From Candidatus Paraprevotella stercoravium (GTDB lineage: Bacteria > Bacteroidota > Bacteroidia > Bacteroidales > Bacteroidaceae): a stretch of 41,175 bases of DNA. The stretch spans positions 1 through 41,175 of the forward strand of contig CALUIU010000028.1 of NCBI GenBank assembly GCA_944320795.1, written 5' to 3'. The position numbers were made by a program, and so were the translations under genes. Positions 172 through 27,821 of this stretch are shown one piece after another (the first letter of the stretch is position 1; each line of letters starts with the position of its first letter). A model generated the notes under the pieces. It did no database searches. It was not told the DNA's origin and saw only the letters and a list, made by a program, of their open reading frames with translations.

Positions 172-1338
172 ATGAAATACAATTTTGACGAAGTGATTCC
201 ACGTCGTGGAAGTAATTCTATCAAATGGGATACAGATTGCTGTCCGGACATGTTGCCTATGTGGATTGCCGATATGGATTTCCGTCTGGCACCTAAAATC
301 AAAGAAGCTGTAGCCCGTCGTCTGGAGCAGGGTGTGTTTGGCTATGCTCATATTCCAGATGCTTTTTATGATGCGATAATCAATTGGTTCAACCGCAGGC
401 ATCAGGTTCGTATTGAGCGCGAATGGATTCTTTACACGATTGGAGTTGTTCCGGCATTGGCTACTGCCGTTACCGCATTGACCCAGCCGGGCGACGGTGT
501 GCTGATCCAGCCTCCTGTATATAATCATTTTTATAGCTGTATTGAGGGAAATAACCGTCGTTTGGTTGAAAGTCCGCTTCGTTATGAGGATGGTCGCTAT
601 ACTGTTGACTGGGAAAATCTGGAGCAGAAGGCTTCCGATCCAAATGTCAAACTGATGATTATCTGCAATCCTCATAATCCGGCAGGAAGAGTGTGGACAC
701 GTGAGGAACTGATCCGTATGGGCGAAATCTGTTTGCGCCATGACGTATTCATTGTTTCTGATGAGATTCATTGTGAGTTGGTATCCCCAGGATTTACTTA
801 TACTCCTTTTGCGTCGCTTTCTGAAGAACTGCGTAATCATAGTGTGATTTGCTCTTCACCGAGCAAGGCCTTTAATCTGGCCGGTTTTCAGGTGGCTAAT
901 ATCTTTGTCCCGAATCCCCGGATGCGTGAAAAGCTCAATGCCGTGCTGATGGGTATGGACATCGAGAGCCTGAACTGCTTTGCCGTAGAAGCTCTGATAG
1001 CGGCTTATAACGAGAGTGAGGACTGGTTGGACGAACTGAACGTCTACATCCACGAGAACTATCTCTTTATGAAAAACTTTGTGGAGACCAATATGCCCGA
1101 TCTTTATCTGGTTCCTCTGGAAGGTACTTACCTGGCATGGCTGGATTGCCGTGTCTTGGGAAAAACATCTGAGGAGATGAATAATGATCTGAAATCCAAG
1201 TATTGCCTGTGGCTGAATTCCGGAACGATGTATGGAACTGCCGGTGACGGCTTTTTGCGTTGGAATCTGGCTTGCCCACGTTCTATCTTGGAAGAAGGTC
1301 TGAACCGCTTCCTGAAATATTATCAAGAGCATAAATAA
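172..1338 (+). CDS. PatB/MalY-type PLP-dependent C-S lyase (cystathionine beta-lyase)
   Basis: A 388-residue fold-type I aminotransferase-like enzyme of the MalY/PatB family, which cleaves C-S bonds of cystathionine or cysteine conjugates in the cytoplasm. Visible family marks are the opening MKYNFDEVIPRRGSNSIKWD, the substrate/cofactor loop NPHNPAGRVW, SDEIH with the Asp that contacts the PLP ring nitrogen, SPSKAFNLAG with the Schiff-base lysine at about residue 232, and the carboxylate-binding Arg in RWNLACPR near the C-terminus. Length is normal for the family. The ATG at 172 is preferred; an upstream in-frame TTG at 142 would add ten low-complexity residues. It is a single gene followed by its own terminator. 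Whether the main substrate is cystathionine or another thiol conjugate cannot be told from sequence. Confidence 0.9.
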   Translation: MKYNFDEVIPRRGSNSIKWDTDCCPDMLPMWIADMDFRLAPKIKEAVARRLEQGVFGYAHIPDAFYDAIINWFNRRHQVRIEREWILYTIGVVPALATAVTALTQPGDGVLIQPPVYNHFYSCIEGNNRRLVESPLRYEDGRYTVDWENLEQKASDPNVKLMIICNPHNPAGRVWTREELIRMGEICLRHDVFIVSDEIHCELVSPGFTYTPFASLSEELRNHSVICSSPSKAFNLAGFQVANIFVPNPRMREKLNAVLMGMDIESLNCFAVEALIAAYNESEDWLDELNVYIHENYLFMKNFVETNMPDLYLVPLEGTYLAWLDCRVLGKTSEEMNNDLKSKYCLWLNSGTMYGTAGDGFLRWNLACPRSILEEGLNRFLKYYQEHK

Positions 1339-1357
1339 GAATAAATCATAATATCTG

Positions 1358-1420
1358 AAAAGTCTGCTTTGATCTTTCCATAATGATGACTTAGGAAATA
1401 GATCAAGGCAGACTTTTTTT
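1358..1420 (+). terminator. Intrinsic terminator of the PatB-type lyase gene
   Basis: The arms AAGTCTGCTTTGATCT and AGATCAAGGCAGACTT pair with one mismatch around a loop of about 25 nt, followed by a run of seven T on the plus strand. It starts about 20 nt after the stop codon. Confidence 0.8.
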
Positions 1421-1460
1421 ATGATGAGGGCTGAAAGCAGAAACAGGTCAATACAAACAA

Positions 1461-1494
1461 AAAAGAGTTGTTTCGAATGAAACAACTCTTTTTG
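1461..1494 (-). terminator. Terminator of rpmE2 (usable from both strands)
   Basis: A perfect hairpin with arms AAAGAGTTGTTTC and GAAACAACTCTTT and a 4-nt loop. The minus strand continues with a T run, placing it about 20 nt after the rpmE2 stop. The plus-strand side also ends in several T, so it may back up the lyase terminator. Confidence 0.85.
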
Positions 1495-1513
1495 AATATC
1501 TTGAGTCCTGATA

Positions 1514-1765
1514 TTATTTGCGAGTCTTAGCGTAGCGGCTCATGAACTTGTCAACGCGACCAGCAGTATCAACCAACTTGCTCTTACCAGTGTAGAACGG
1601 GTGAGAAGTGTTAGAGATTTCAAGCTTAACTACTGGGTAAGTTTCGCCTTCGAATTCTACAGTGTCAGTAGTCTTGCAAGTAGAACGTGAAAGGAACATG
1701 TCACCGTTACTCATGTCTTTGAATACAACAGGACGGTAATTCTCTGGATGGATATCTTTCTTCAT
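1514..1765 (-). CDS. rpmE2: 50S ribosomal protein L31 type B
   Basis: An 83-residue ribosomal protein L31 of the B type, a component of the large subunit at the central protuberance. It begins [19 protein letters not shown] and carries the typical [25 protein letters not shown] segment (split here by reading, not by the gene). It lacks the four-cysteine zinc motif of the A type: only one Cys is present, in STCKTT. This zinc-free form can replace the zinc form under zinc limitation in other bacteria. It is monocistronic, with a canonical promoter and a strong terminator. Identification is secure; a regulatory role in zinc homeostasis here is inference only. Confidence 0.96.
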
Positions 1766-1834
1766 AATTTAAAATTTTTATCAATTAAACATATAGCTGG
1801 TAACTATAATGTGTAATGGTCTGTTTACGAGGTG

Positions 1835-1866
1835 CAAAATTACTCGATTTCTTTTTATTTACCAAA
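1835..1866 (-). promoter_or_regulatory. Bacteroides-type promoter of rpmE2
   Basis: Read on the minus strand, TTTG (-33; 1863-1866) is followed after exactly 20 nt by TAATTTTG (-7; 1835-1842), a perfect match to TAnnTTTG. Transcription should begin near 1828, giving a leader of about 60 nt before the ATG at 1765. Confidence 0.75.
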
Positions 1867-1890
1867 TTTATCCGTAAAAAAATGTGGCAT

Positions 1891-2772
1891 TTATTTTAAT
1901 CCGGGCCAACTTTCCAGACTGAAGGTCTTTTCTATAGGATTTTCGATGCGGTCCGGCAGATTGCAGAAGAAATCGATACCGGTTTTTTTCTCCAGTTCGT
2001 CGATGCTGACAGCCCAGGAGCTTACGTCCGGATTGCCGCCATAGGACTTGTGCTCCACCCAAAAGCCGATGGCTTTGTAAGTGCCTGACTTTTTGCACAT
2101 CAGCGCCATGAAATAATATTTCGGAACGGGCATTCCGCTTTTTGTGTAACGCAGAATCTGGTCATCACGAATAGTTCCTCCCTTCACAACATAGAGCGTG
2201 TCGCGGAAAGTGCTGCTGCGTCCCCAGTTCTGAACAAGTCCTTCCAGATCCACCCAGTCCTGCTGGTTGAAACGTCCGATCTGCGGACTCATATTCGACA
2301 GATAAAATGTCTGCTCGTTGCAGTCCTTGCTGTTCAGACGGTCGGCTGAGGCGCAAAGATGTCCGCGGTCGTATCCGCTTCCTTTAAAATCACTCAGTTC
2401 CGTTCGTTCACCGGCAGAAAGTGCCGGATCGGGCTGAAATGGATCACCTCTCCATTCCGTGTTCTTCCAATTATTCCGATTCCAGTTCTGTTTGGAATTT
2501 TCGGCAGTAAAAGTGAATGCTACCCATCTGGAATGTTTTTTGTCGGAATGCCAGTCTACGGTATAGTTCAGGATACCCGAAGCATAATGTGAGATGATCT
2601 TTCCGGCATTGTCGTCAATGCGAGGGATTTCCAGGTTTCCGGCATTCTGTATTACCAGAGGATTGCTGTTGGAGTTTTGAGAACTGCCACTGCCATCGCT
2701 GTCGTTGGAGCAGGAGGATACCAATGCTGTAGCCAGAATAAATATAAACGTATGAATCTTTTTTAGGAACAT
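1891..2772 (-). CDS. NucA/EndoG-family DNA/RNA non-specific endonuclease lipoprotein
   Basis: A 293-residue secreted nuclease of the beta-beta-alpha-metal family that degrades DNA and RNA. The signal peptide ends in lipobox VSSC (Cys at about 21). The residues after it, SNDSDGSGS, are acidic and serine-rich, resembling the Bacteroides signal for display on the outer surface. A linker of about 25 residues precedes the nuclease domain. The catalytic motif DRGH (about 135-138) is present, followed by SNMSPQ and NQQDW, which contain the Mg-binding Asn region and the helix typical of the family. The start is ATG 2772; a TTG three codons earlier is less likely. The gene lies behind a terminator hairpin after the DUF6359 lipoprotein gene and probably belongs functionally to the same locus. 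Confidence 0.9.
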   Translation of the reverse strand: MFLKKIHTFIFILATALVSSCSNDSDGSGSSQNSNSNPLVIQNAGNLEIPRIDDNAGKIISHYASGILNYTVDWHSDKKHSRWVAFTFTAENSKQNWNRNNWKNTEWRGDPFQPDPALSAGERTELSDFKGSGYDRGHLCASADRLNSKDCNEQTFYLSNMSPQIGRFNQQDWVDLEGLVQNWGRSSTFRDTLYVVKGGTIRDDQILRYTKSGMPVPKYYFMALMCKKSGTYKAIGFWVEHKSYGGNPDVSSWAVSIDELEKKTGIDFFCNLPDRIENPIEKTFSLESWPGLK

Positions 2773-2794
2773 TCTTTGCAATATATTTTAAACA

Positions 2795-2843
2795 AAGAAT
2801 TGTCATTCCAGAATCAAATCAAAGTTCCGGAATGACAATTCTT
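2795..2843 (-). terminator. Hairpin terminator between the DUF6359 gene and the nuclease gene
   Basis: The arms AAGAATTGTCATTCC and GGAATGACAATTCTT are perfectly complementary over 15 bp, with a loop of about 19 nt. On the minus strand the second arm runs into TTTG TTT, a weak T tract. It lies 20 nt after the DUF6359 gene stop and 23 nt before the nuclease start, so it may act as a partial terminator that lowers nuclease expression, or as an RNA processing site. Confidence 0.7.
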
Positions 2844-2865
2844 CGTAGTATTATCAATAAAGAGG

Positions 2866-4791
2866 TTACTTAACGCTCAAGTTCTTGATTTCCCAAGTAA
2901 TAGTGTTTGCATTCTCTGCATTCTTATATTTGAATGCAAAGTATGCATTTGCTCCTACAGCCGGCAGTTTGGTGGTTACGGTTTCGAAAGTCCAACCGGA
3001 AGTAGCCGGGTAGGTAATGTTTACCTGAGTCCATGTAGCAGTTGTTACATCACCGTTATAATCTGTAGAAACCCAAACGGTGTACTGTTCTGGTGCATTG
3101 CTCAGATCTTGATTTTTAGGACCCATAGCATGTTCAAAGGTCAGCGTGTGCTCCTTGCTCAAATCGACGGCAGGAGAAACCAACCAGTCTTCGTTTTCCA
3201 AAGACACTCCATTTGAATATGCAGACATGCTGACATAGCCATAACTATCTGTTTTCCATTCTTGGGCACCGCTTACGCTTACTGGAGTGAAGTTTCCAAA
3301 GGTGTTGTTAAAAGATTCTTCCAGAATAGCATCACCACTTGGCTCTTCTGTACCACCAGAGCTTTGTCCGTCCAAAACATATTCTGTAATGGATTTCAGA
3401 CCGTATGTTCCGAAGTATTTCTCCAAAGAACCCTTGACAATGACTTCTTTACCTAAGTTGCTAGGGTTGTCCTTCAGGTTCAAGGCATTGCGTACATCAC
3501 CGCTTGGCAATTGCAGTACCAGACAGTTCTTATAGTCTGTTTCTGTCTTACTGTCCGCAATTAACAGGTTAGTCTTATTTTCATCAGTGATGCTGCTCAG
3601 GTCATTCAGAATTGATCCGTCAATGCTCTTACCGTTTACATAACCTACAATGTAGCCTTTCACCCAAGTGTCAGCCAAAGGCTTGCTAGCATTGTATTTA
3701 GAGATAGCTGTAGCTACGGTAAACGGATTCTCCTTACTGCTTTCGTTTTCAGTTGGAGTTTCCGGCTCTTCTGGAGTTTCACCAGCAGCGCGGTCTTCAA
3801 TAGAAATGTTCTTCAATTCATAAGTACCGGCCTTTTCTGTACAATTATACTTGAATCCGATTTTCACTTTCTTGCCTTTGTAAGCATTCAGATCGATATC
3901 ACCGGATTTTGCAAACGGAGTCCATGCATCCTGCAATACGTGGTTTGGAATAGTCAGCTGTTGCCAGTTTTCAACATTGCTTTCGGTAATCCACAAAGTG
4001 ATGTTTTCCGGCAAATTTGTGAAGTAGCGGGCTACATACTCAAAAGTCAGGGTTGCATTGGTTGCGTTGCTCAGATCAACTTCCGGAGAAATTAACCAAC
4101 TTTCAGCAGCATAATCGGTATAGTTTACGAATGAAGTGGCTTTCATGTACTTGTAAGAGTCCCAAGTCCATACTTCTGCACCCATTTCAGCTGGTACTGT
4201 TACATTCTTCACAGTAAACTCACCCTGGCCAGAAGCGAATGTTTCGCTGAAGATGGCTTTCACTTCTTCTGCCGGAATGTCACCGATAGTGTCGCCGTTC
4301 ATTATATAAGCCTGTACGTTCTTAATACCAGAACCGCCAAAATACTTCTCCATAGTACCCAGCAACATCACTTCCTGATACAGGTTCTGCGGATGGCCTT
4401 TCAAGTTCAGAGAATCTCTGATTTCACCGGCAGGAAGCTGCACGGCCAGACAGTTGTTGATGTTTTTGTCGTCAGGACTTACGGATACCACCATATTGGT
4501 TTCCCCAGCGCCTTCCGCTCCGAATACAACATCTGAAATGGTAGAGCTGACGTCACCTCCCGATGGGATGTAACCTACGATATATGCCTTTACCCAACCC
4601 AATTTGCCGTTTTGGTTAAGCATGGCTCCTTTTACAGAATAAGGATTCTGCATAGTTCCTTCGCCATAAATACTGCTGTTGTCTCCGGTTCCCGGAATGT
4701 CATAAGGAGCAGGAACATCGCTACAGGCATTGAATGAGAATAATGCCATTGAAGCCAAAAACAGTGAACTGATAATCTTTTTAATTTTCAT
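2866..4791 (-). CDS. Surface lipoprotein with duplicated DUF6359 and choice-of-anchor J modules
   Basis: A 641-residue lipoprotein (signal peptide, Cys in NACSDVP at about 23). Its body is an ABAB repeat. Module A is DUF6359-like, at about 45-175 and again 355-475, each with NPYSV or NPFTV, GYIVGYV/IPSG, a NCLAVQLP or NCLVLQLP strand and EKYFG. Module B is a choice-of-anchor J beta-sandwich, at about 180-335 and 490-641, each with ESW/EDWLxSPxVDLS and a TLTFEH/Y strand. DUF6359 resembles OB-fold domains that accompany secreted nucleases, which fits nucleic-acid binding; the anchor-J sandwich is usually adhesive or structural. It is the third gene after a TonB receptor and a DUF5689 lipoprotein, with a 19-nt gap. 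No catalytic motif is seen; a binding role is inferred. Confidence 0.82.
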   Translation of the reverse strand: MKIKKIISSLFLASMALFSFNACSDVPAPYDIPGTGDNSSIYGEGTMQNPYSVKGAMLNQNGKLGWVKAYIVGYIPSGGDVSSTISDVVFGAEGAGETNMVVSVSPDDKNINNCLAVQLPAGEIRDSLNLKGHPQNLYQEVMLLGTMEKYFGGSGIKNVQAYIMNGDTIGDIPAEEVKAIFSETFASGQGEFTVKNVTVPAEMGAEVWTWDSYKYMKATSFVNYTDYAAESWLISPEVDLSNATNATLTFEYVARYFTNLPENITLWITESNVENWQQLTIPNHVLQDAWTPFAKSGDIDLNAYKGKKVKIGFKYNCTEKAGTYELKNISIEDRAAGETPEEPETPTENESSKENPFTVATAISKYNASKPLADTWVKGYIVGYVNGKSIDGSILNDLSSITDENKTNLLIADSKTETDYKNCLVLQLPSGDVRNALNLKDNPSNLGKEVIVKGSLEKYFGTYGLKSITEYVLDGQSSGGTEEPSGDAILEESFNNTFGNFTPVSVSGAQEWKTDSYGYVSMSAYSNGVSLENEDWLVSPAVDLSKEHTLTFEHAMGPKNQDLSNAPEQYTVWVSTDYNGDVTTATWTQVNITYPATSGWTFETVTTKLPAVGANAYFAFKYKNAENANTITWEIKNLSVK

Positions 4792-4810
4792 AATATATCT
4801 CTATTAGTTT

Positions 4811-5623
4811 TTATCTTTCAATATCTCTTGAAGTTCTCACGGTTATTTGCCAGTCGTTGTTGTAACGGGTCAGAAGGCCATTCATGTTGAATGGACGGTT
4901 TGGCATATAATCATTCGCAAAGTTAGCATAAGTGCTGATGCGGAAAGGAAGGGTAGTACTGCCGATATTTAAAGTACGGTTTACACCATTTCCACCGTCA
5001 CCTAATTCTTCCGGAGCGTAGACCGTATAGCCGTCTGCTTCTTCAATTGTTACATCTTTAAGATAGACAAAGAACGGAGCGTCGTCTTTGTTTGCTGAAC
5101 TCAACCAACTGGCATCAATTGTGTCGGGAACCAGTTCTTTGTAATTGAGTGAAGGACGGCCTTCTGTACGCATGTGCTCTTTCCAGATATTTTCCGACAT
5201 ACGTCCGATTTTTCCCTGATAGAGAGTTCCCAACTGGGCCATGGCACCGTATCCTCCAATGTAAAGTCCCTTACAGTTTACCACGATTTTCTGTCCTACA
5301 GGAAGCTTTGAGTAAATACCAGTGGTGTTGATACCGATTACAATGGCAGCTGTGGTGTCGCGCAGGTAGATCTGCTTATATACGTTTCCGGATTCATCAT
5401 CAGCTACAACCACTCCGCTGATAATGATGCTATCTTCAATCTGTTGCACTCCGCTGCTGGAAGTGATGCTCTTGAACTGTTGCTTCAGTTGGGCAATAGT
5501 TGTATTTGCTTCCGGTACACTGGGATTGCCATAAACATCCAAATTGGGTGCGTCGTGTTGATCCATGCATCCGGTCAGGATTACCGCCATCAAGGCAACC
5601 ATGAATAATGTTATTTTTTTCAT
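4811..5623 (-). CDS. DUF5689 domain lipoprotein
   Basis: A 270-residue lipoprotein with a signal peptide and lipobox ILTGC (Cys at about 19), followed by an N-terminal linker and a DUF5689 domain from about residue 40 to the end. The DUF5689 features seen are an ISGVVVADDESGNVYKQIYL strand pair (OB-fold-like), the IVIGINTTGIY strand, a VGQKIVVNCKGLYIGGYG strand and a C-terminal region ending in ITVRTSRDIER. The family is common in Bacteroidetes beside TonB-dependent receptors and is presumed to bind substrate at the outer membrane; no enzymatic function is established that I know of. The gene sits 24 nt after the receptor and 19 nt before the DUF6359 lipoprotein, so the three are almost certainly cotranscribed. 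Confidence 0.85.
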   Translation of the reverse strand: MKKITLFMVALMAVILTGCMDQHDAPNLDVYGNPSVPEANTTIAQLKQQFKSITSSSGVQQIEDSIIISGVVVADDESGNVYKQIYLRDTTAAIVIGINTTGIYSKLPVGQKIVVNCKGLYIGGYGAMAQLGTLYQGKIGRMSENIWKEHMRTEGRPSLNYKELVPDTIDASWLSSANKDDAPFFVYLKDVTIEEADGYTVYAPEELGDGGNGVNRTLNIGSTTLPFRISTYANFANDYMPNRPFNMNGLLTRYNNDWQITVRTSRDIER

Positions 5624-5647
5624 ATTATACCTTTCTTGTTGTTGTTT

Positions 5648-8203
5648 TTAAAAACGGAATCCAATGTTCATGAAGGCATTGATTCCCTGTGCATAGTAAT
5701 ATTTTGAATGTTTGGAGAACTGGTATGGACGCTCGCGGCCGTCGTCATAGCTGTCATCACGGCTTTGCTCATATCCTCCGGTTTTCATATTGGTATTGTT
5801 CAATACATTATTTACAGTCAGGTTCAGACTCAATGTACGGCCTTTTTTCAGACGGATGAATTTACCTATGGAAGCGTCGAGCATAAAACCGCCCTTGAAT
5901 TCCTCTTGTTCCGGAACTTGGACACCTACCGGGTTGCCATTTTCGTCTACAGTACCTGAAGACGCATTTTTCTCCAAAATGCTGGCCAGACGGCGATAAG
6001 TAGAAAAATCGATAAATCCGCGGTGATAGTAGTTTCCGTTTACATTGAAGAACCAGCCGTTTACACTATAATCCAGTCCTAAACTATAGGCAGAGAGTGG
6101 TGTGCCGCTGTCTTTCATGCCCTTGGCATAAACCTTATCGGGAGTAGACTCGCTTTCATTTTCGTAGGTCAAGGTTGCATTCGGATTATTGATATATTCT
6201 GCATTACTGAAAGTACCGATTGCGTTCAAACTCAAGTTTGATGTAATCTTGACACTGGCAGCCAATTCTACACCCATATATTCTTTTTGAATATCACTCA
6301 TAGACAGATAAGTATATCGAGATTCCTGATCATTGTAGAAAGCATCCATCTCTACCAAATCATTAAAACGTGTATAGTAACCGCTTACCTTCATGGTGAA
6401 GCGTGGTAAAGTCAGCGCATAACTGGCTTCTGCTGTATACATTTCCTCATTGGTCAGATTGTCTACGAAGTCATTCTTCAAACGTGGTGCAATGAAGGCA
6501 TTGTAGGCTGTCGGAGCGTTCTCTTCATAACCCAATCCAAAGTTGATGGTATGCTTTCCGTTAGGCTTGAGGGTCAATCCGATCTTACCGCCAGATTCCA
6601 GGAATTTGGCTACGCCACTGCTACCTTTTGACTTGTTGGCTGCACGACCGTTGCGCATCAATCCGTCGCGCTCAATAGTGCTTCCACCCAAACGGAATGC
6701 TGCAAACAGAGTGGTGATGCCCTTTGTGAGCTGATAATTGCTCCAGACATTGGCTTTGTTTACATATACATTGTAATTATATCCAAAGATGTCACCTTCC
6801 CGGATAATGCGGTTTGGATTGTCCAGGTCATTCTGGATCATAGGAGAATTGTAGCCATAGTCACGTACAGAGAACTTGTCAATGTCGGTCATATAGTCTG
6901 CCCCCAGCAAATCGCTCATGGTTTTATAATGCATACCTTTTGTGGTATTTATATTAAAACCGGCTGAGATTGCTCCGTGTTTATTGAATGAATGTTTTAA
7001 TGTAGAATTCAGATTGAATGCCATCTGGTCATTGTGTCTTTCCTCCACATAGTACAATGCTTCTCCCCCTAATGCTTTTTGTTGTGCATTGGCAAAGTAC
7101 ATGGCATCCCAGTCTATTTGTCTGTGGGCTTTATCACTAGTCCAATACTCATAGGCATCTTTCCAGATTTGTATATCCTCATCGCTGAGTGGCTGATTGA
7201 ATACGTTTCCGGAAATCTGTCCGCTTGGCAGTTTCTTATAATAGTCAGGACGTGGGTCTGACGCATTTCCCGACCAACCGAGAGCCGTGTTGCCATACAT
7301 GCTGTATTTGCCCATGAACGAAGTGCTTAAATTCGTCCGGTCGTTAATTTTGAAGTCCCAGGTCAGAACTGCTGTCGGCTCATAGGAGTTTACGACGCGG
7401 GCATTACGTTTTTCTCCGTTCTGGTAACCCCAGTTCGGATTATAGTAATGACTGTTGGCCAACCAGTAGGCTTCTTCTGTTGAGGCGCCCTGCTGTGCTC
7501 TTTCTGTAGGTGATCCCCATGTGCTCAAGTTCAGGCTGTGGCGGTCGTTGAACACCTTCTGCACTGCCAGAAAATAGCCTAAAGAGTTGTAGAAGGTTCC
7601 CTCGATATATCCTTCATTTGCCCAGCGGTATGCCAATGAGCCGGTTACGGCCCAGCCGTTGTTCATCAGTCCGGTGGAATAAGTATAGACGCCACGTGCC
7701 AAATAATTTCTGTTACATCCGGAAAGGGTAATTTTATTACCCGGACTGTATTGGCTCGCTCTCACATTGATGTCGGTAGATCCTCCCAATGCAGAGAAAC
7801 CGAAGTTATTCATATTCAGGAAAGGAGATCCTTCCCGGTTACGGGTTGCATCGTTCAAACCTCCGATAGAACTGTAGCTGAACTGTCCGCGTTCGGCATC
7901 GTTCATCTGTACTCCGTTGATATAAGTTTCGCTTTGCTGGTTATTGTAGGCACGATAACGGAAGCGCATCGGGCTGAACAGATAGCCGACATTCGAAAGA
8001 TACAGGTCATTGTTTACTCCTAAAACGGAGTTTACGGTGCGCCCGTTATCATCATCTTCGTCCAGTTGGGATTCGGTGAATGTGAAGTCTGCGTTTTCCA
8101 TTTTTGCAATGCTTTCAGCAATGGCAACCGTATCTTTTTGCTGGGCAAGAAGATAGGTGGAAAAACAACATGCAGACGCCATTAAAGCAAGTCTTTTGTT
8201 CAT
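5648..8203 (-). CDS. TonB-dependent outer-membrane receptor (nuclease-linked locus)
   Basis: An 851-residue TonB-dependent transporter. It has a signal peptide ending LLAQQ, an acidic N-terminal stretch (DEDDDNGRT), a plug domain (YINGVQMNDAERG and GSTDINVRAS regions) and a 22-strand-type barrel ending in the terminal aromatic NIGFRF. No N-terminal CarboxypepD-like domain is visible, unlike classical SusC. ATG 8203 is chosen because the TATCTTTG promoter element at 8232-8239 would lie inside any longer frame; the open frame extends to 8308. It heads an operon with the DUF5689 and DUF6359 lipoproteins and, beyond a hairpin, a NucA nuclease. Cargo is unknown from sequence; I infer nucleotides or nucleic-acid fragments from the neighbours. 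Confidence 0.88.
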   Translation of the reverse strand: MNKRLALMASACCFSTYLLAQQKDTVAIAESIAKMENADFTFTESQLDEDDDNGRTVNSVLGVNNDLYLSNVGYLFSPMRFRYRAYNNQQSETYINGVQMNDAERGQFSYSSIGGLNDATRNREGSPFLNMNNFGFSALGGSTDINVRASQYSPGNKITLSGCNRNYLARGVYTYSTGLMNNGWAVTGSLAYRWANEGYIEGTFYNSLGYFLAVQKVFNDRHSLNLSTWGSPTERAQQGASTEEAYWLANSHYYNPNWGYQNGEKRNARVVNSYEPTAVLTWDFKINDRTNLSTSFMGKYSMYGNTALGWSGNASDPRPDYYKKLPSGQISGNVFNQPLSDEDIQIWKDAYEYWTSDKAHRQIDWDAMYFANAQQKALGGEALYYVEERHNDQMAFNLNSTLKHSFNKHGAISAGFNINTTKGMHYKTMSDLLGADYMTDIDKFSVRDYGYNSPMIQNDLDNPNRIIREGDIFGYNYNVYVNKANVWSNYQLTKGITTLFAAFRLGGSTIERDGLMRNGRAANKSKGSSGVAKFLESGGKIGLTLKPNGKHTINFGLGYEENAPTAYNAFIAPRLKNDFVDNLTNEEMYTAEASYALTLPRFTMKVSGYYTRFNDLVEMDAFYNDQESRYTYLSMSDIQKEYMGVELAASVKITSNLSLNAIGTFSNAEYINNPNATLTYENESESTPDKVYAKGMKDSGTPLSAYSLGLDYSVNGWFFNVNGNYYHRGFIDFSTYRRLASILEKNASSGTVDENGNPVGVQVPEQEEFKGGFMLDASIGKFIRLKKGRTLSLNLTVNNVLNNTNMKTGGYEQSRDDSYDDGRERPYQFSKHSKYYYAQGINAFMNIGFRF

Positions 8204-8231
8204 AAATAAAACAGTTAATGTGATTTTTCTA

Positions 8232-8239
8232 CAAAGATA
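8232..8239 (-). promoter_or_regulatory. -7 element of the TonB receptor operon
   Basis: The minus strand reads TATCTTTG, a perfect TAnnTTTG match, about 30 nt before the chosen ATG at 8203. No clear TTTG is seen 20 nt upstream. The position argues against the longer open reading frame start. Confidence 0.55.
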
Positions 8240-8429
8240 TGTGATTCTATTGAAGTACCTATTTTCTTCTATCTTTTTTAAATTTAAAAGGCTTAATTTT
8301 AATTTCATTATCTGAATCTTATTACAAATGAATGTCGAATTATATAATGAATAATTAAAGTTTTTGAATTCTTATATCTTTTAAAGTAAGTGAAATTCAA
8401 TTTCATTAGAATAACTCATAAAAATATTG

Positions 8430-8437
8430 CATATTTG
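8430..8437 (+). promoter_or_regulatory. Possible -7 element of the secreted phosphatase/nuclease gene
   Basis: CATATTTG matches TAnnTTTG in seven of eight positions counting the free ones, and lies 39 nt before the ATG at 8477. The 270-nt gap between the divergent genes is otherwise AT-rich with no other recognisable feature. Confidence 0.3.
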
Positions 8438-8476
8438 TAACCTGAAAAATAAGTAGAATATAAAATAAAGGATTTT

Positions 8477-9520
8477 ATGAAGAGACTTTGGTTATTTGCA
8501 GTGTGTTGCAGCATGTTATTGGCTTCGTATGCGCAGGAGAAGAAATATTCCATGTATGCTGTAGGATTTTATAATTTGGAAAATCTGTTTGATACGATTC
8601 ACGATGAAGGTAAGAATGATTATGAGTATTTGCCGAATGGAACAGGCCGTTGGAATGGTCTGAAGTATTTTTCCAAATTGAAAAACATGTCTTCTGTTTT
8701 GGCCGAATTAGGTACTGACCGTTTGCCTAATATCGGTGCAGCAGTAATAGGTGTGTCCGAGGTGGAAAATGCCCGTGCTTTAACGGACCTGATCAGTCAG
8801 CCGGCCTTAAAGAAAAAAGGTATGAAGTTTGTGCATATCGAGGGGCCGGACACCCGAGGAGTAGATTGCGCTTTGCTTTATAACCCTCAGCTGTTTGTTC
8901 CTGAAAAAAGTTTCCTGAAGCCTTATGTGTTTGAACCGGTAGACACTACTTATAAGACCCGTGGTTTTCTTACCGTTCAAGGAACTATGGCAGGTGATGC
9001 CATTACCTTTATTGTATGCCACTGGCCCAGCCGTTTTGCGGGATCTTATCACCGTGAGCTGGCCGGAAAGCAGGTGAAGGTGCTCAAGGACAGTATTCTG
9101 TCCGCAAATCCTCAGATGAAAGTAATTGTCATGGGCGATATGAATGATGATCCGTTTGATCCGAGTATGTCTAAGAAATTGTCGGCCAAAAAGAGCATTG
9201 ACAAAGTTGGACGCGATGATATGTATAATCCTTGGTGGAGCATCCTGACCGACAAGGGACAGGGAACTCTGCTCTATGACGGCAAATGGAATCTGTTTGA
9301 TCAGATTGTTGTTTCGCCGAACTTGCTAAATAAAAAAGGTGAGCGTGACTTTTCTACCTTGAAGTTTTTCAAGAATGAGATCTTTATGCGCGATTATCTG
9401 TTTCAGACCGAAGGAAAATATAAAGGAAACATTAAGAGAACTACGGCCAGCGGTGTCTGGCTCAACGGTTATAGCGACCATTTACCCGTTGTGATTTATT
9501 TATTGAAAGAGAAAAAGTAA
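8477..9520 (+). CDS. Secreted endonuclease/exonuclease/phosphatase family protein
   Basis: A 347-residue protein with a signal peptide (cleavage after about residue 19, SYAQ) and one EEP (DNase I-like) domain. All the metal and phosphate-handling motifs are visible: FYNLENLFDT at the start (Asn), SEVEN with the Mg-binding Glu, CHWPSR with a catalytic-region His, VMGDMNDDP with the Asp/Asn pair, and the C-terminal SDHLP with catalytic Asp and His. Such enzymes hydrolyse phosphodiesters or phosphomonoesters; the exact substrate is not readable. With no lipobox it should be periplasmic or secreted. It diverges from the TonB receptor operon that ends in a NucA nuclease, which supports a shared role in breaking down nucleic acid. 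Confidence 0.88.
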   Translation: MKRLWLFAVCCSMLLASYAQEKKYSMYAVGFYNLENLFDTIHDEGKNDYEYLPNGTGRWNGLKYFSKLKNMSSVLAELGTDRLPNIGAAVIGVSEVENARALTDLISQPALKKKGMKFVHIEGPDTRGVDCALLYNPQLFVPEKSFLKPYVFEPVDTTYKTRGFLTVQGTMAGDAITFIVCHWPSRFAGSYHRELAGKQVKVLKDSILSANPQMKVIVMGDMNDDPFDPSMSKKLSAKKSIDKVGRDDMYNPWWSILTDKGQGTLLYDGKWNLFDQIVVSPNLLNKKGERDFSTLKFFKNEIFMRDYLFQTEGKYKGNIKRTTASGVWLNGYSDHLPVVIYLLKEKK

Positions 9521-9561
9521 AAAAACTGATTTTTTCCGTATCCGGTTTGCAGATTTTTGAC

Positions 9562-9569
9562 TATCTTTG
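9562..9569 (+). promoter_or_regulatory. -7 element of the aldolase gene
   Basis: TATCTTTG is a perfect TAnnTTTG match 40 nt before the fba ATG. A TTTG at 9546-9549 is too close (12 nt) to be a standard -33 element. Confidence 0.55.
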
Positions 9570-9609
9570 TCCGGAGAAAGATACATTACGTTTTTAAATT
9601 TATAAAGAC

Positions 9610-10608
9610 ATGGTAAATTACAAAGATTTAGGTTTGGTTAATACCAAAGAGATGTTTGCTAAGGCCATTAAAGGTGGTTACGCAATCCCAGCATTCAACT
9701 TCAACAACATGGAGCAGATGCAGGCTATCATTAAGGCTGCTGTAGAGACTAAGTCTCCGGTTATCCTTCAGGTTTCTAAGGGTGCTCGTCAGTATGCTAA
9801 CGCTACTCTGTTGCGTTACATGGCTCAGGGTGCTGTTGAGTATGCTAAGGAGTTGGGCTGCGAGAATCCTCAGATTGTATTGCACCTCGACCACGGAGAT
9901 ACTTTCGAGACTTGCAAGAGCTGTATCGATTCAGGTTTCTCTTCAGTAATGATCGACGGTTCACACCTGCCATACGAAGAGAACGTTGCTTTGACTAAGA
10001 AGGTTGTTGACTACGCTCATCAGTTCGATGTAACTGTAGAAGGTGAGCTGGGTGTATTGGCTGGCGTTGAGGATGAAGTTTCTTCAGACCACCACACTTA
10101 TACTAACCCAGAAGAGGTTATCGACTTCGCTACTCGTACAGGTTGCGATTCTTTGGCTATCTCAATCGGTACTTCTCACGGTGCTTACAAGTTCACTCCA
10201 GAGCAGTGTACTGTAGATCCTAAGACTGGTCGTCTGGTTCCTCCTCCATTGGCATTCGACGTTTTGGATGCTGTTATGGAGAAACTTCCTGGATTCCCAA
10301 TCGTATTGCACGGTTCTTCTTCAGTTCCTCAGGAAGAAGTTGAGACTATCAACAAGTACGGTGGTGCTTTGAAGGCTGCTATCGGTATTCCAGAAGAGGA
10401 ATTGCGTAAGGCTGCCAAGTCTGCTGTTTGCAAGATCAACATCGACTCTGACTCTCGTTTGGCTATGACTGCAGCTATCCGTAAGGTATTCGCTGAGAAG
10501 CCAGCTGAGTTCGATCCTCGTAAGTACTTGGGTCCTGCTCGTGACAACATGGAGAAGTTGTACAAGCACAAGATCATCAATGTATTGGGATCTGACAACA
10601 AGTTATAA
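9610..10608 (+). CDS. fba: Class II fructose-1,6-bisphosphate aldolase
   Basis: A 332-residue zinc aldolase that interconverts fructose 1,6-bisphosphate with dihydroxyacetone phosphate and glyceraldehyde 3-phosphate in the cytoplasm. Motifs in order: PAFNFNNMEQ near the N-terminus, LHLDHGD with catalytic Asp (about 94) and a zinc His (about 95), GSHLPYEENV, VEGELGVLAG with the conserved Glu, the zinc His in GTSHGAYK, and LHGSSSVP with the third zinc His; INIDSDSR follows. Codon use is strongly skewed to a few codons (GCT, GGT, AAG, CGT), unlike the neighbours, as expected for a very highly expressed glycolytic gene. It is monocistronic with its own -7 element and terminator. Confidence 0.96.
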   Translation: MVNYKDLGLVNTKEMFAKAIKGGYAIPAFNFNNMEQMQAIIKAAVETKSPVILQVSKGARQYANATLLRYMAQGAVEYAKELGCENPQIVLHLDHGDTFETCKSCIDSGFSSVMIDGSHLPYEENVALTKKVVDYAHQFDVTVEGELGVLAGVEDEVSSDHHTYTNPEEVIDFATRTGCDSLAISIGTSHGAYKFTPEQCTVDPKTGRLVPPPLAFDVLDAVMEKLPGFPIVLHGSSSVPQEEVETINKYGGALKAAIGIPEEELRKAAKSAVCKINIDSDSRLAMTAAIRKVFAEKPAEFDPRKYLGPARDNMEKLYKHKIINVLGSDNKL

Positions 10609-20892: not shown

Positions 20893-23601
20893 TTAGAATT
20901 TATATGAAATACTCAAGTCAAGATCGATACCGTTTTCATATCGCTCCACTTCAACGGTCTTATTGGCTATCGGGAGCTCCTGCGAGAGTACAAAGTCGGA
21001 ATTCAACAGGTTCTTGACTTGCAATTTGGCACTGAGATGTTTGTTGAACTGATACCCCAGATTCAGATTCAGTGTATGTAATGTTTCCTGATATACATCG
21101 CCTTGCTTTTGAATACCAACAGCCTGAATGCGTTTTCCCTGAAGATTGTAGAGCAGAGCCATGGATAATTTCCGGTCTTTACTAAAGGAAGGGGTATAAC
21201 TCAGATCGGCATTGACTATATAGGGTGATGCTCCCTGAAGCTGTCTTTCTGTGTTCGTGTAGACCATTCCGCTGGGCAGCTGGACGTTGGTGTACATGTA
21301 GGAAGCGTTTACCGAGGTACTCAGGTCCTTGATGATTTCTTTTCTTATTTCAACCTCTATACCGGCAGCCAGTCCGTCTGTGGCATTTTGGAAAGAATAT
21401 TCGCGTGCACCTCCAGAAACCCACTGGGTTCTTTCAATTGGAGTTTCCAGATATTTATAGTAACCTGTTATGGCAATCATATCGTTGCTGTTTGGACGGA
21501 ACCATTCATAACGCAGGTCAAAATTGTAGTTATATCCGTTGGTCAGGTCAGCATTACCACGCAGATTAGCCGATCCGTAAGATTCTTGATACTTGAAAGG
21601 AGCCATTTCCACAAATTGCGGACGGGTTACCGTTCGTGAGGCAGACAGACGAATGGCATGGGCCTTATTTATATCATATTTCAGATTCAGGGCCGGGAAG
21701 AAGTCATTGCAGTCCAGATTACGGATTTTTGCCTTATTGTCGCCGTCTTCATAATATTCCACCCATTGTCGGCTGTTTTCGAAGCGTACGCCGGCATTAA
21801 GTGACAGTTTGTTCCATAGCAGAAAGTCTGCATCCAGAAAACCAGCTATAATGCGGTTACCGGCTTGATAACTGTTGCTTGGCACTTTCCGGCGATTAAT
21901 GGTAATGTTTCCTTGCTGTACTTGGTCAAAATTCAAATAACCGTCTGTATCATAGATATTATCAAAAGGAGCATACAGCTCGTTGATCTTATCTACGTTA
22001 TAGAAAAAGTCAACTCCCATGAAATCTCTTTTTTTGTCTTTGATGGCAGCTCCTATCCTCAGCTTGTCGTTTTTGTTCAGGTGATAAGCCACTTTCAAGT
22101 CGCCCACCCATTCATCCTCATTCAGCTCGCCATAGTAGCGCATAATTTCTTGCTGGTTCAGTGTAAAGAGTTTCAAAGACTCGTCATCCTGTATTTCGTA
22201 CATTACCTGACGGCGGTCCGGTTCGTCACTTTTTGAGATATTGTATGATCCGCTCCAGTCAGCTTTCCAGTGATCTCCGAACTCGTGATGTCCGGCAAGC
22301 TGGTAATCCTGCAAGTTATAGATATGTGTAGTTTGGTTACTGCTCAGCAGACGGTGTTTTTCTTCATCGAGCACGTTTCTGCTCATATAGTTGTCAGAAG
22401 CATTGCGGGCATAAAAGAAAGTTCCGCGGATAAAATCGAAGCGTCTGAACTTATAGTTTGTGTTGAAAAGCCCTGATAACCTGTTTTCCTGAGTGAACTT
22501 ATCGTATGTGTATTCACTTTTAAGCACTCCTGTGGCATCATATGATTTGTTGTATGCGTCATAAATGTTCTTATAGTCTGAACTGACTCCGAGTGAGGCC
22601 ATCAGATCCAGATCGCCATGATTCAGATTAAATGTCTTGCCCCAACCAACATTTCCTCCAATATTCGGTAGGGTTGTTCTTTTTCTAGTCTGAAACGAAG
22701 TGGGGAAAATATCATGTGTTTGGGCATATTGGTCGTAATCCTGTAAAGGCAGATCGAGAGCTTTTTGATCTATCTTGCTGGAAGTGAATAGTGTACCTTT
22801 GCGGTCCATCTGATAGAAATCGCTAAAAGTGCTGCCCCATGTTCCTCCTGTATTCAGCGAGAGGGAGAAGAAGCCATCTGTTTTGTTTTCTTTGGTGCTG
22901 ATATTGACATGGGCACCAGAATAGTCTGCAAAAGTAGACGGGCTGTAAACCTTACTAACTGTGATATTTTGTACTGTTGAAGAAGGAAACAGATCCAGCG
23001 GAATCAGCTTGTTGTCCGGATTAGGCGAAGCGATTGGCATTCCGTTGAGTGTGGTAATGCTGTAACGGTCTCCCAGTCCGCGTACCACCAGCTGTCCGGC
23101 GTCGGCAATGGAGATGCCGGAGATACGTTTTACACCTTCCTGTACGTTTGAGATTCCTTTTACACTCATTTCTCCTGCACCCAGATTTTCAATGGCAATA
23201 TTTGATTGCTTTCTTTCTGCCAGAAGAATACGTTCCAATTCGAAGTTTTTACGGGCGGTGACTGTTACCTCGTCAAGTGATTTATTATCGGCTTTCATTT
23301 CAACCTTGACATTTACCGCTCCTTTGGCAGGAACCTGAATCTGTATGTGTTGGGTCAGAAAAGACAAATAGGAAATTTCCAAGGTATATTCTCCTTTCTT
23401 GAGATTCCTGATACTGAAGTTGCCCTCAAGATCTGCTACCGCACCTGTTTGAGAATTCATTACTTTAATTACAGCACCGTAAAGGGGTTCGTTTAGTTCC
23501 GTGTCAATAACGGTTCCAAGAATGTCTCCGGCAAAAGCCTGTGGTATGGATGTGGAAACCAGGAGAGCGGTGCAAAATCTAAGTCTGTTTTTTTGATTCA
23601 T
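20893..23601 (-). CDS. TonB-dependent receptor with CarboxypepD-like N-terminal domain
   Basis: A 902-residue outer-membrane transporter. Order of parts: signal peptide (cleavage at AFAGD, about 24); a carboxypeptidase-regulatory-like beta-sandwich (about 25-110: GTVIDTELNEPLYGAVIKV, LEGNFSIRNLKKGEYTLEIS); a plug (about 125-260) with VVRGLGDRYSITTLNGMPI and LDLFPSSTVQNITVSKVYSP; and a barrel ending DLSISYKF. The plug wording and the presence of the N-terminal sandwich separate it from the receptor at 5648-8203. It is the first gene of a two-gene unit with the beta-helix lipoprotein. A -7 element and an 11-bp direct repeat precede it (23629-23664), suggesting inducible expression, perhaps by phosphate limitation. 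Confidence 0.92.
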   Translation of the reverse strand: MNQKNRLRFCTALLVSTSIPQAFAGDILGTVIDTELNEPLYGAVIKVMNSQTGAVADLEGNFSIRNLKKGEYTLEISYLSFLTQHIQIQVPAKGAVNVKVEMKADNKSLDEVTVTARKNFELERILLAERKQSNIAIENLGAGEMSVKGISNVQEGVKRISGISIADAGQLVVRGLGDRYSITTLNGMPIASPNPDNKLIPLDLFPSSTVQNITVSKVYSPSTFADYSGAHVNISTKENKTDGFFSLSLNTGGTWGSTFSDFYQMDRKGTLFTSSKIDQKALDLPLQDYDQYAQTHDIFPTSFQTRKRTTLPNIGGNVGWGKTFNLNHGDLDLMASLGVSSDYKNIYDAYNKSYDATGVLKSEYTYDKFTQENRLSGLFNTNYKFRRFDFIRGTFFYARNASDNYMSRNVLDEEKHRLLSSNQTTHIYNLQDYQLAGHHEFGDHWKADWSGSYNISKSDEPDRRQVMYEIQDDESLKLFTLNQQEIMRYYGELNEDEWVGDLKVAYHLNKNDKLRIGAAIKDKKRDFMGVDFFYNVDKINELYAPFDNIYDTDGYLNFDQVQQGNITINRRKVPSNSYQAGNRIIAGFLDADFLLWNKLSLNAGVRFENSRQWVEYYEDGDNKAKIRNLDCNDFFPALNLKYDINKAHAIRLSASRTVTRPQFVEMAPFKYQESYGSANLRGNADLTNGYNYNFDLRYEWFRPNSNDMIAITGYYKYLETPIERTQWVSGGAREYSFQNATDGLAAGIEVEIRKEIIKDLSTSVNASYMYTNVQLPSGMVYTNTERQLQGASPYIVNADLSYTPSFSKDRKLSMALLYNLQGKRIQAVGIQKQGDVYQETLHTLNLNLGYQFNKHLSAKLQVKNLLNSDFVLSQELPIANKTVEVERYENGIDLDLSISYKF

Positions 23602-24690: not shown

Positions 24691-25305
24691 ATGGTGAACA
24701 TGAAAGACGGTATGAATTTGTGTGAGCAAAGTGTCAAGCGTTTGTTTGACATTGTGGCAGCATTAATAGGTCTGATTTTGCTTTCACCTGTTTTTTTTCT
24801 GATCGCTTTTTTGTTATGGAGGCGTCGTGACGGATCGGTTTTTTTTAGACAGGAACGGATCGGTTTTCAGGGTAAGCCTTTTAATATTTTGAAGTTTAGA
24901 ACTATGCCGGAGCAGAGTGCCGCCAAGGAAAAACCTCAGCTTACAGGAACGAATCAGGTAATTCGAAGTTCTTTGTGTCGTTTTTTAAGAGAACATCATT
25001 TGGATGAGTTACCTCAGTTATGGAATGTGTTGGTAGGAGACATGTCGTTTGTTGGTCCTCGTCCGGAAAGAAAGTATTTTATAGATCAGATTATGGCGGT
25101 GGATCCAAATTATGAGTATATATATAAAATGCGTCCCGGTTTGACTTCCTGGGCCACATTATATAACGGATATACAGATACGTTGGATAAAATGTTGGTG
25201 CGTTTAAGAATGGATCTGGAGTATTATCAGAACCGTTCCCTTTGGACGGATCTCAAGATTATTTTTATGACGGCTGCTTTTATAATTAACGGAAAAAAAT
25301 TTTAG
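24691..25305 (+). CDS. Initiating sugar-phosphate transferase (PglC/WcaJ-type, short form)
   Basis: A 204-residue monotopic polyprenyl-phosphate phosphoglycosyl transferase that moves a sugar-phosphate from a nucleotide sugar to undecaprenyl phosphate, the first step of glycan assembly at the inner membrane. The N-terminal reentrant helix (about 18-45, KRLFDIVAALIGLILLSPVFF) is followed by the catalytic domain: FFRQERIGFQGKPFNILKFRTM, the Asp-Glu dyad in LDELPQLWNVL, GDMSFVGPRPE and MRPGLTSWA. It lacks the N-terminal membrane and CoA-binding-like domains of full-length WcaJ/WbaP. Sugar specificity cannot be read. It is first in the exopolysaccharide operon, 4 nt before the exporter gene. Confidence 0.93.
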   Translation: MVNMKDGMNLCEQSVKRLFDIVAALIGLILLSPVFFLIAFLLWRRRDGSVFFRQERIGFQGKPFNILKFRTMPEQSAAKEKPQLTGTNQVIRSSLCRFLREHHLDELPQLWNVLVGDMSFVGPRPERKYFIDQIMAVDPNYEYIYKMRPGLTSWATLYNGYTDTLDKMLVRLRMDLEYYQNRSLWTDLKIIFMTAAFIINGKKF

Positions 25306-25309
25306 AATT

Positions 25310-27820: not shown

Positions 27821-27821
27821 T

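What the first reader, a model, noticed from the sequence alone, without database searches (positions are those of the whole stretch)
1891..9520. Candidate extracellular nucleic-acid degradation and import locus
Five exported proteins lie together: a TonB-dependent receptor, a DUF5689 lipoprotein, a DUF6359/choice-of-anchor J lipoprotein, a NucA-type DNA/RNA nuclease lipoprotein with an acidic post-Cys tail, and a divergent secreted EEP phosphodiesterase/phosphatase. Both nuclease families have complete catalytic motifs (DRGH; GDxND and SDH). DUF5689 and DUF6359 look OB-fold-like, a fold often used to bind nucleic acid. The layout is parallel to Sus-like glycan loci, with nuclease in place of glycosidase and OB-type lipoproteins in place of SusD. 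The likely role is scavenging extracellular DNA/RNA for phosphate, nucleosides or ribose. Seen: genes and motifs. Inferred: cargo and cooperation.
Basis: partly seen in the sequence, partly recalled or inferred. Interest (0 to 1): 0.72.

Follow-up and report, generated by a model that had tools for sequence, protein, structure and literature searches.

The report
Likely TonB-powered DNA uptake locus
These genes appear to be a relative's version of a surface receptor and lipoprotein pair that a bird bacterium needs to take up foreign DNA, here paired with DNA-cutting enzymes, so they may help show how this group pulls DNA through its outer membrane.

Summary
The five genes are real and at the stated places. 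Related loci show a class-wide core: a secreted EEP nuclease, usually divergent; an unusual receptor-like outer-membrane barrel; and a DUF5689 lipoprotein, often with a choice-of-anchor-J part. In 149 genomes of the window's order the receptor orthologue occurs in 70, all 70 with DUF5689; none of 62 DUF5689-less genomes has it. The NucA-type nuclease is not core: found in all 5 same-family stretches fetched, 5 of 57 other same-order ones, 0 of 27 of other orders. The telling relative is Riemerella anatipestifer: its single receptor and lipoprotein orthologues, in the same layout near comEC, fit RA0C_RS04915/RS04920, whose deletion abolishes natural transformation. The window's two lipoproteins tile that one lipoprotein. 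Best reading: an outer-membrane importer of nucleic acid. Whether this host uses it for food, transformation or both is open: seven of nine genomes without a ComEC match keep the receptor. I found no experiment on the window's own genes.

The parts
1891..2772 (-). Lipoprotein NucA-type DNA/RNA non-specific endonuclease (Endonuclease_NS), acidic stretch after the lipobox Cys; accessory, mainly family-level part
   Evidence: PF01223 162.7 bits; PDB relatives 2o3b, 1zm8, EndoG, 1g8t; catalytic D, G, H, N, E invariant in 11 sequences; within the fetched stretch of 10 of 90 related loci, 5 of 5 of the same family
2866..4791 (-). Lipoprotein with DUF6359 - choice-of-anchor J - DUF6359 - choice-of-anchor J; holds the second half of the split partner lipoprotein
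   Evidence: PF19886 in two stretches; NF038128 in two stretches; aligns to positions 296-456 of NF052645 (M949_1556 family), 78.8 bits, below that model's cut-off of 475
4811..5623 (-). DUF5689 lipoprotein; the first half of the split partner lipoprotein
   Evidence: PF18942 207.4 bits; aligns to positions 10-274 of NF052645, 105.2 bits, below cut-off 475; the only PF18942 place found in this genome
5648..8203 (-). Divergent TonB-dependent-receptor-like outer-membrane barrel; orthologue of the R. anatipestifer gene identified as RA0C_RS04915
   Evidence: single full-length member in G000 (1102.7 bits; next 40.3) and one in R. anatipestifer G392 (1051.2; next 172.4); ORF runs to 8308, signal peptide from 8203
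8204..8476 (.). Divergent intergenic stretch, presumed promoter region of both arms
   Evidence: sequence read from 8250; promoter-like sites over 1300-9700 no more frequent than in shuffles (20 against mean 17.7)
8477..9520 (+). Secreted endonuclease/exonuclease/phosphatase (Exo_endo_phos_3), divergent core partner
   Evidence: PF19580 311.6 bits; catalytic residues identical in 69 of 69; in 66 of 82 related loci with room for it, divergent and adjacent in 57

Best explanation
An outer-membrane importer of nucleic acid, most likely DNA. Surface lipoproteins (DUF5689 and the DUF6359/choice-of-anchor-J protein) capture or present DNA to a dedicated receptor barrel, which passes it to the periplasm with TonB energy. 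The lipoprotein NucA-type nuclease trims DNA outside, and the secreted EEP enzyme acts on it in the periplasm or outside. From the periplasm the fragments go to ComEC (transformation) or are broken down for nucleosides and phosphate. Shown here: gene content, catalytic motifs, class-wide linkage of receptor, DUF5689 and EEP, one-to-one orthology of receptor and lipoprotein to the R. anatipestifer pair. From the literature, for that pair: each deletion abolishes transformation. Inferred: DNA as the transported cargo, TonB energy, protein locations, nuclease substrates, and all functions in this host.
For: Orthology: an R. anatipestifer genome (found by a published comEC primer) has one PF18942 place and one full-length receptor homologue (that profile held both proteins). 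An HMM built only from the window's order gave its receptor 799 bits in one stretch, against at most 153 per stretch and 304 summed for other receptors in the fetched loci. Layout there: comEC, two genes, EEP, divergent receptor, DUF5689+cAJ lipoprotein, which fits the tags RS04895 to RS04920 in steps of five. Markerless deletion of RS04915 or RS04920 brings transformation below detection; mutation of tonBA or tonBB lowers it. Split lipoprotein: the two window proteins cover positions 10-274 and 296-456 of NF052645, which the Riemerella lipoprotein matches end to end. Co-occurrence in 149 genomes of the order: 70 receptor+ all DUF5689+; 17 DUF5689+ without the receptor; 62 neither; Fisher p 1.4e-26, not corrected for kinship. 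EEP in 66 of 82 loci with room. DUF5689 also occurs fused to PLD nucleases and in an LTD/EEP protein. The genome has an uninterrupted 715-aa ComEC frame.
Against: No positive link to ComEC: 7 of 70 receptor+ genomes lack a PF03772 match against 2 of 79 receptor- (p 0.08), and two more receptor+ genomes (G008, G126) have a reduced ComEC. DUF5689 proteins are acidic (median pI 4.74, n=113; window 5.15, Riemerella 5.60), odd for a DNA binder. OB fold not confirmed. Two papers cite work that ties M949_1556, the gene the NCBI family is named for, to antigenicity, LPS and virulence of R. anatipestifer (passages), so a pleiotropic envelope effect is possible; whether it is the same gene as RS04920 was not checked. 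The EEP tag RS04910 is not in the screen's table of defective mutants. Flavobacterium johnsoniae has the homologues but was not competent under the conditions tried. A few relatives break the linkage: L111 has a strong DUF5689 gene without the receptor in its stretch, and in G047 the two lie on different contigs. I found no transformation or uptake data for the window's genus.
Confidence: 0.62

Rival explanations
1. Purely nutritional: the locus degrades extracellular DNA/RNA and imports oligonucleotides or nucleosides for phosphate, purines or ribose; transformation in Riemerella is a later or additional use of the same importer.
For: Two nucleases beside the importer, the NucA-type one in 5 of 5 fetched stretches of the window's family; receptor kept in 7 of 9 genomes without a PF03772 match, two of them of one genus; removal of phosphate lowers transformation in R. 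anatipestifer (passage of the abstract).
Against: The orthologues are indispensable for transformation in R. anatipestifer and stand near comEC, with three genes between comEC and the receptor; the NucA-type nuclease was not found in any of 27 stretches of other orders, although EEP, also a likely nuclease, is in 23 of the 26 with room.
Confidence: 0.25
2. Envelope or other-ligand role: the receptor and lipoproteins move a non-nucleic ligand or shape the cell surface, and loss of transformation in Riemerella is indirect.
For: M949_1556 work cited for altered LPS antigenicity and virulence (passages); acidic lipoproteins; other envelope genes lower transformation in the same screen.
Against: Linkage to nucleases: EEP in 66 of 82 loci with room, NUC in 10 of 90, a PLD-type protein in 5 of 90; DUF5689 fused to or beside nuclease domains of two superfamilies in one protein; the loss of transformation is complete in both deletions, while most other envelope genes of the screen gave partial effects or, as clean deletions, none.
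Confidence: 0.13

Closest known systems
R. anatipestifer RA0C_RS04915/RA0C_RS04920 natural-transformation pair (PMC8459023; abstract and sections 17-21 read)
   Same: Orthologous receptor, DUF5689 + choice-of-anchor J lipoprotein directly downstream, EEP divergent upstream
   Different: In the window the lipoprotein is split in two with added DUF6359 domains, a NucA-type lipoprotein nuclease follows, and the receptor has no CarboxypepD_reg match; comEC is on another contig (C10)
SusC/SusD glycan uptake loci
   Same: Outer-membrane receptor plus lipoproteins plus degrading enzymes
   Different: No SusD and no glycosidase among the five; the receptor has none of the Pfam plug/barrel matches that the SusC-like receptor at 20893-23601 has
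Extracellular DNase BT3563 of Bacteroides thetaiotaomicron (PMC11078008, passages; the 2022 PNAS paper is not held)
   Same: A Bacteroides extracellular DNase; supernatant of the deletion mutant did not degrade DNA
   Different: Its protein family and neighbours were not seen here; any identity with NUC or EEP of this locus is untested
ExeM/YhcR-type extracellular nucleases (recalled names)
   Same: DUF5689 beside LTD and EEP domains in one secreted protein (L132); B. subtilis holds a PF18942 match over the cut-off, the gene not seen
   Different: There one polypeptide, here separate proteins with an importer

Membership tests
RS04915/RS04920-type transformation pair | One-to-one orthologous receptor | tested here: met
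   Single full-length hit in each genome, 1102.7 and 1051.2 bits, next 40.3 and 172.4 (the profile held both sequences); HMM without Riemerella 799 bits
RS04915/RS04920-type transformation pair | DUF5689 + choice-of-anchor J lipoprotein next to the receptor | tested here: met
   Met as two adjacent proteins covering positions 10-274 and 296-456 of NF052645, both below its whole-protein cut-off of 475 bits
RS04915/RS04920-type transformation pair | Deletion abolishes natural transformation in this host | not testable with these tools
   Shown only in R. anatipestifer
RS04915/RS04920-type transformation pair | Positive co-occurrence with ComEC | tested here: not met
   63 of 70 receptor+ and 77 of 79 receptor- genomes have ComEC; ComEC is near universal (140 of 149), so the test is weak
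SusC/SusD (PUL) | SusC-like Pfam plug and barrel; SusD partner | tested here: not met
   No such Pfam match in the receptor; no SusD match among the five proteins
Endonuclease_NS (NucA/EndoG) | Family match and catalytic DRGH, N, E | tested here: met
Exo_endo_phos_3 (EEP) | Family match and catalytic N, E, D, N, D, H | tested here: met
OB-fold nucleic-acid binder (DUF5689) | OB fold | tested here: inconclusive
   Single-sequence model pLDDT 31; best PDB sequence matches E 0.022 and 0.046, to unrelated proteins
OB-fold nucleic-acid binder (DUF6359) | OB fold | not tested
   Only a PDB sequence search was made; its one match lies in the second choice-of-anchor J part
Type IV pilus DNA uptake | Pilus and secretin genes in this genome | not tested

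The most novel reading that the evidence does not exclude
A pilus-free, TonB-powered outer-membrane DNA importer is a shared DNA-entry route of the class Bacteroidia. In the window's order it is dual-use, feeding on DNA and supplying ComEC, with EEP as a built-in processing enzyme; it would supply the missing outer-membrane step of competence in this class, perhaps also in Porphyromonas gingivalis, where that step is stated to be unclear.
Probability: 0.42. Interest if true: 0.86.

Novelty: new variant of a known kind. Interest (0 to 1): 0.64.

Why it matters
How these bacteria bring DNA across the outer membrane is open: a 2024 P. gingivalis paper found ComEA and ComEC essential and states that import into the periplasm remains unclear (passages and section 14 of PMC11532111). 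This locus names a specific, widespread candidate (70 of 149 genomes of the window's order, 126 of 251 of its family) with an experimental anchor in R. anatipestifer, and makes the question testable by simple deletions in a gut commensal. If it is also nutritional, it joins DNA feeding and gene acquisition in one machine.

Tried and rejected
Structure: the mature DUF5689 protein folded alone gave pLDDT 31; no fold search was run. PDB sequence searches gave nothing convincing for DUF5689, nothing for EEP at E 0.1, and for the receptor weak barrel matches and matches in an N-terminal extension that the window protein lacks.

Phyletic test for competence: ComEC (140 of 149) and HHH_3 (145 of 149) are too common to discriminate; the ~715-aa HHH_3 frames are probably Tex (recall), and ComEA-like proteins were not sorted out.

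P. gingivalis: a 16S primer recalled from memory found nothing in 149 genomes of one family and 151 of one genus; I now think that family is not Porphyromonadaceae, so P. gingivalis stays untested.

Promoters: the sigma-70 scan was no better than shuffles. Charge of the receptor: median net -1, no signal. Viral collection: one distant receptor paralogue, no DUF5689 match in its stretch.

Selection and dropped rows. Loci were picked by DUF5689 match, strong ones first: 60 of the 87 positive genomes of the order, 40 of the 91 of the class, and Riemerella. One search was chosen partly to include genomes without ComEC. So DUF5689 in 90 of 90 is by construction; the unbiased test is. Of 101 related loci, 11 without a receptor orthologue were left out of the 90: L111, L129-L135, L139, L157, L167. 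Of these, L129, L134, L135 and L139 hold a PLD-type protein and L132 an LTD/EEP fusion; L111, L157 and L167 are strong DUF5689 matches, and in G047 (L157) and G001 (L167) the receptor is on another contig. The four of 90 that fail the 'directly downstream' rule are three with overlapping ORF starts (L044, L062, L123) and one with a gene between (L137). One search used a looser receptor rule (74 of 81 loci) and is superseded.

Full report
What is there. The five ORFs are real and their families are as stated, with small changes to start codons (observation check). Both nucleases keep their catalytic residues: in EEP they are identical in 69 of 69 aligned sequences, in NUC the D, G, H, N and E positions are invariant in 11. 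The window's nuclease, DUF6359 and DUF5689 proteins have lipoprotein-like N-termini, and EEP a cleavable-type signal (N-termini printed, judged by eye). Of 113 DUF5689 proteins, 88 had a lipobox in the first 45 residues, and 85 of these an acidic residue soon after the Cys, which fits surface export in this phylum (recalled rule). No tool named the window's organism; that its order is Bacteroidales and its class Bacteroidia is my inference from the proteins and relatives.

Conservation. PF18942 was found in 87 of 149 genomes of the order and 91 of 247 of the class. I fetched stretches around DUF5689 matches from 60 of those 87, 40 of those 91 and R. anatipestifer: 101 loci besides the window. 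Of these, 90 hold an orthologue of the receptor. A DUF5689 gene lies directly downstream in 86 of the 90. Of 82 with at least 1300 bases upstream of the receptor, 66 hold the EEP gene, 57 of them divergent and adjacent, 4 adjacent on the same strand, 5 elsewhere (summed over its groups with L064 counted once). Within the fetched stretch NUC occurs in 10 of the 90: 5 of 5 of the window's own family, 5 of 57 others of its order, 0 of 27 of other orders, 0 of 1 in Riemerella. In L064, L068, L128 and L154 the order on one strand is NUC, EEP, receptor, DUF5689, so the nuclease link recurs in another gene order. A PLD-type protein like those fused to DUF5689 lies in the stretch of 5 of the 90 (L040, L103, L108, L116, L117).

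Unbiased co-occurrence. The loci above were chosen by DUF5689, so I searched the same 149 genomes with the receptor profile alone. Matches split into orthologues (437 bits or more, 70 genomes) and a paralogue group (347-417 bits, the best match in 4 genomes). All 70 are DUF5689-positive; none of the 62 DUF5689-negative genomes has an orthologue; 17 have DUF5689 without it (Fisher p 1.4e-26; the genomes are related, so the number overstates independence). In the window's family 126 of 251 genomes have the orthologue; 13 more have only the paralogue and one (G735) a partial match that could be either; in its genus it is 14 of 16 (my count from the table).

The Riemerella anchor. A literature search for DUF5689 gave one paper, PMC8459023 (abstract and sections 17-21 read): a transposon screen for natural transformation in R. 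anatipestifer. RA0C_RS04915 (predicted outer-membrane protein with a carboxypeptidase-regulatory domain) and RA0C_RS04920 (DUF5689 + DUF5017) are predicted to form an operon; markerless deletion of either brings transformation from 5.4e-5 to below detection. The authors propose, as speculation, that they bind DNA and carry it across the outer membrane. I found an R. anatipestifer genome with a published comEC primer. It has one PF18942 place, in the order comEC, two genes, EEP, divergent receptor, DUF5689+cAJ lipoprotein. Gene order and tag spacing identify the last three as RS04910, RS04915 and RS04920; this identification is mine, as the tags were not in the record and the strain differs (CCUG25054). 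The window's receptor is the single full-length counterpart. NCBIfam NF052645, which the Riemerella lipoprotein matches end to end (590.8 bits, cut-off 475), is tiled by the window's two lipoproteins (105.2 and 78.8 bits, both below cut-off). So the window holds a form of that pair with the lipoprotein split.

Mechanism. TonB is implied by a second R. anatipestifer paper (PMC8383284, passages): tonBA and tonBB mutations lower transformation; the authors explain tonBB by iron, and for tonBA they only speculate on nutrient transport. Together with the nucleases and with proteins that join DUF5689 to nuclease domains (PLD type, and LTD-DUF5689-EEP), the best reading is a TonB-powered importer of nucleic acid. 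The fate of the cargo is less certain. ComEC is present in 140 of 149 genomes, and the window's genome has an uninterrupted 715-aa frame, but 7 of the 9 genomes without a PF03772 match keep the receptor, among them one at 99% completeness (G002) and two species of one genus (G034, G148); a second ComEC domain, PF13567, was over its cut-off in 1 of these 7 (G114). G114, G124 and G141 may be assembly gaps. Two members of another family (G008, G126) keep the receptor with a ComEC ORF of only 373 and 365 aa. That speaks for a use besides transformation.

Against. DUF5689 proteins are acidic; the OB fold is unproven; the gene that names the lipoprotein family, M949_1556, is cited for antigenicity, LPS and virulence effects (passages in PMC12566107 and PMC4976936; the primary paper was not seen); F. 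johnsoniae has the homologues but was not competent under the conditions tried; the EEP tag is not among the screen's defective mutants. I found no experiment on the window's own genes.

Prior art. Searches in the held open-access library: DUF5689 gave one paper, DUF6359 none, the RA0C tags one. Broader searches on TonB, DNA uptake and Bacteroidetes, on Bacteroidota, ComEC and SusC, and on P. gingivalis competence listed, among the rows shown, no paper whose title or abstract start links this receptor to Bacteroidales. Subscription papers and preprint servers are mostly not held, so this is no proof of absence.

Noticed in passing
window 20893-23601 (-) and 24691-30133 (+): A conventional SusC-like receptor (Plug, TonB_dep_Rec_b-barrel, CarbopepD_reg_2), and a separate polysaccharide/capsule-type cluster (sugar transferase, Poly_export/SLBB, a sub-threshold Wzz match, flippase-type protein).
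   Followed up: partly
L129, L134, L135; L040 14120-19267; L130: A paralogous receptor group (at most 153 bits per stretch) sits beside a PLD-type nuclease protein in L129, L134, L135 and L040; in L130 it sits beside a DUF5689 protein without a PLD match. In L103 and L129 the DUF5689-PLD protein carries a T9SS sorting tail. A possible second nucleic-acid receptor type.
   Followed up: partly
L147 1226-2347 (G008), L148 1081-2178 (G126): Two genera of one family have a ComEC ORF of only 373 and 365 aa, beside what looks like ackA, while the receptor locus is kept.
   Followed up: partly
L034 4223-4948 and L153 6664-8046: Several loci share upstream neighbours that look by eye like a polyprenol-phosphate glycosyltransferase (16 loci) and a dihydroorotase (13 loci), suggesting an ancestral neighbourhood beside EEP.
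   Followed up: no
L122 3651-4877: A second EEP-like protein (named by eye) recurs within 7 kb of the receptor in 5 loci.
   Followed up: no
L064, L068, L128, L154: Four-gene same-strand order NUC-EEP-receptor-DUF5689; could match the B. thetaiotaomicron BT3560-BT3563 region (recalled, unchecked).
   Followed up: no
L170: A contig of the viral collection encodes a distant receptor paralogue near what look like DnaK and a phage tail-sheath-like protein (names by eye), so it probably holds bacterial DNA.
   Followed up: partly
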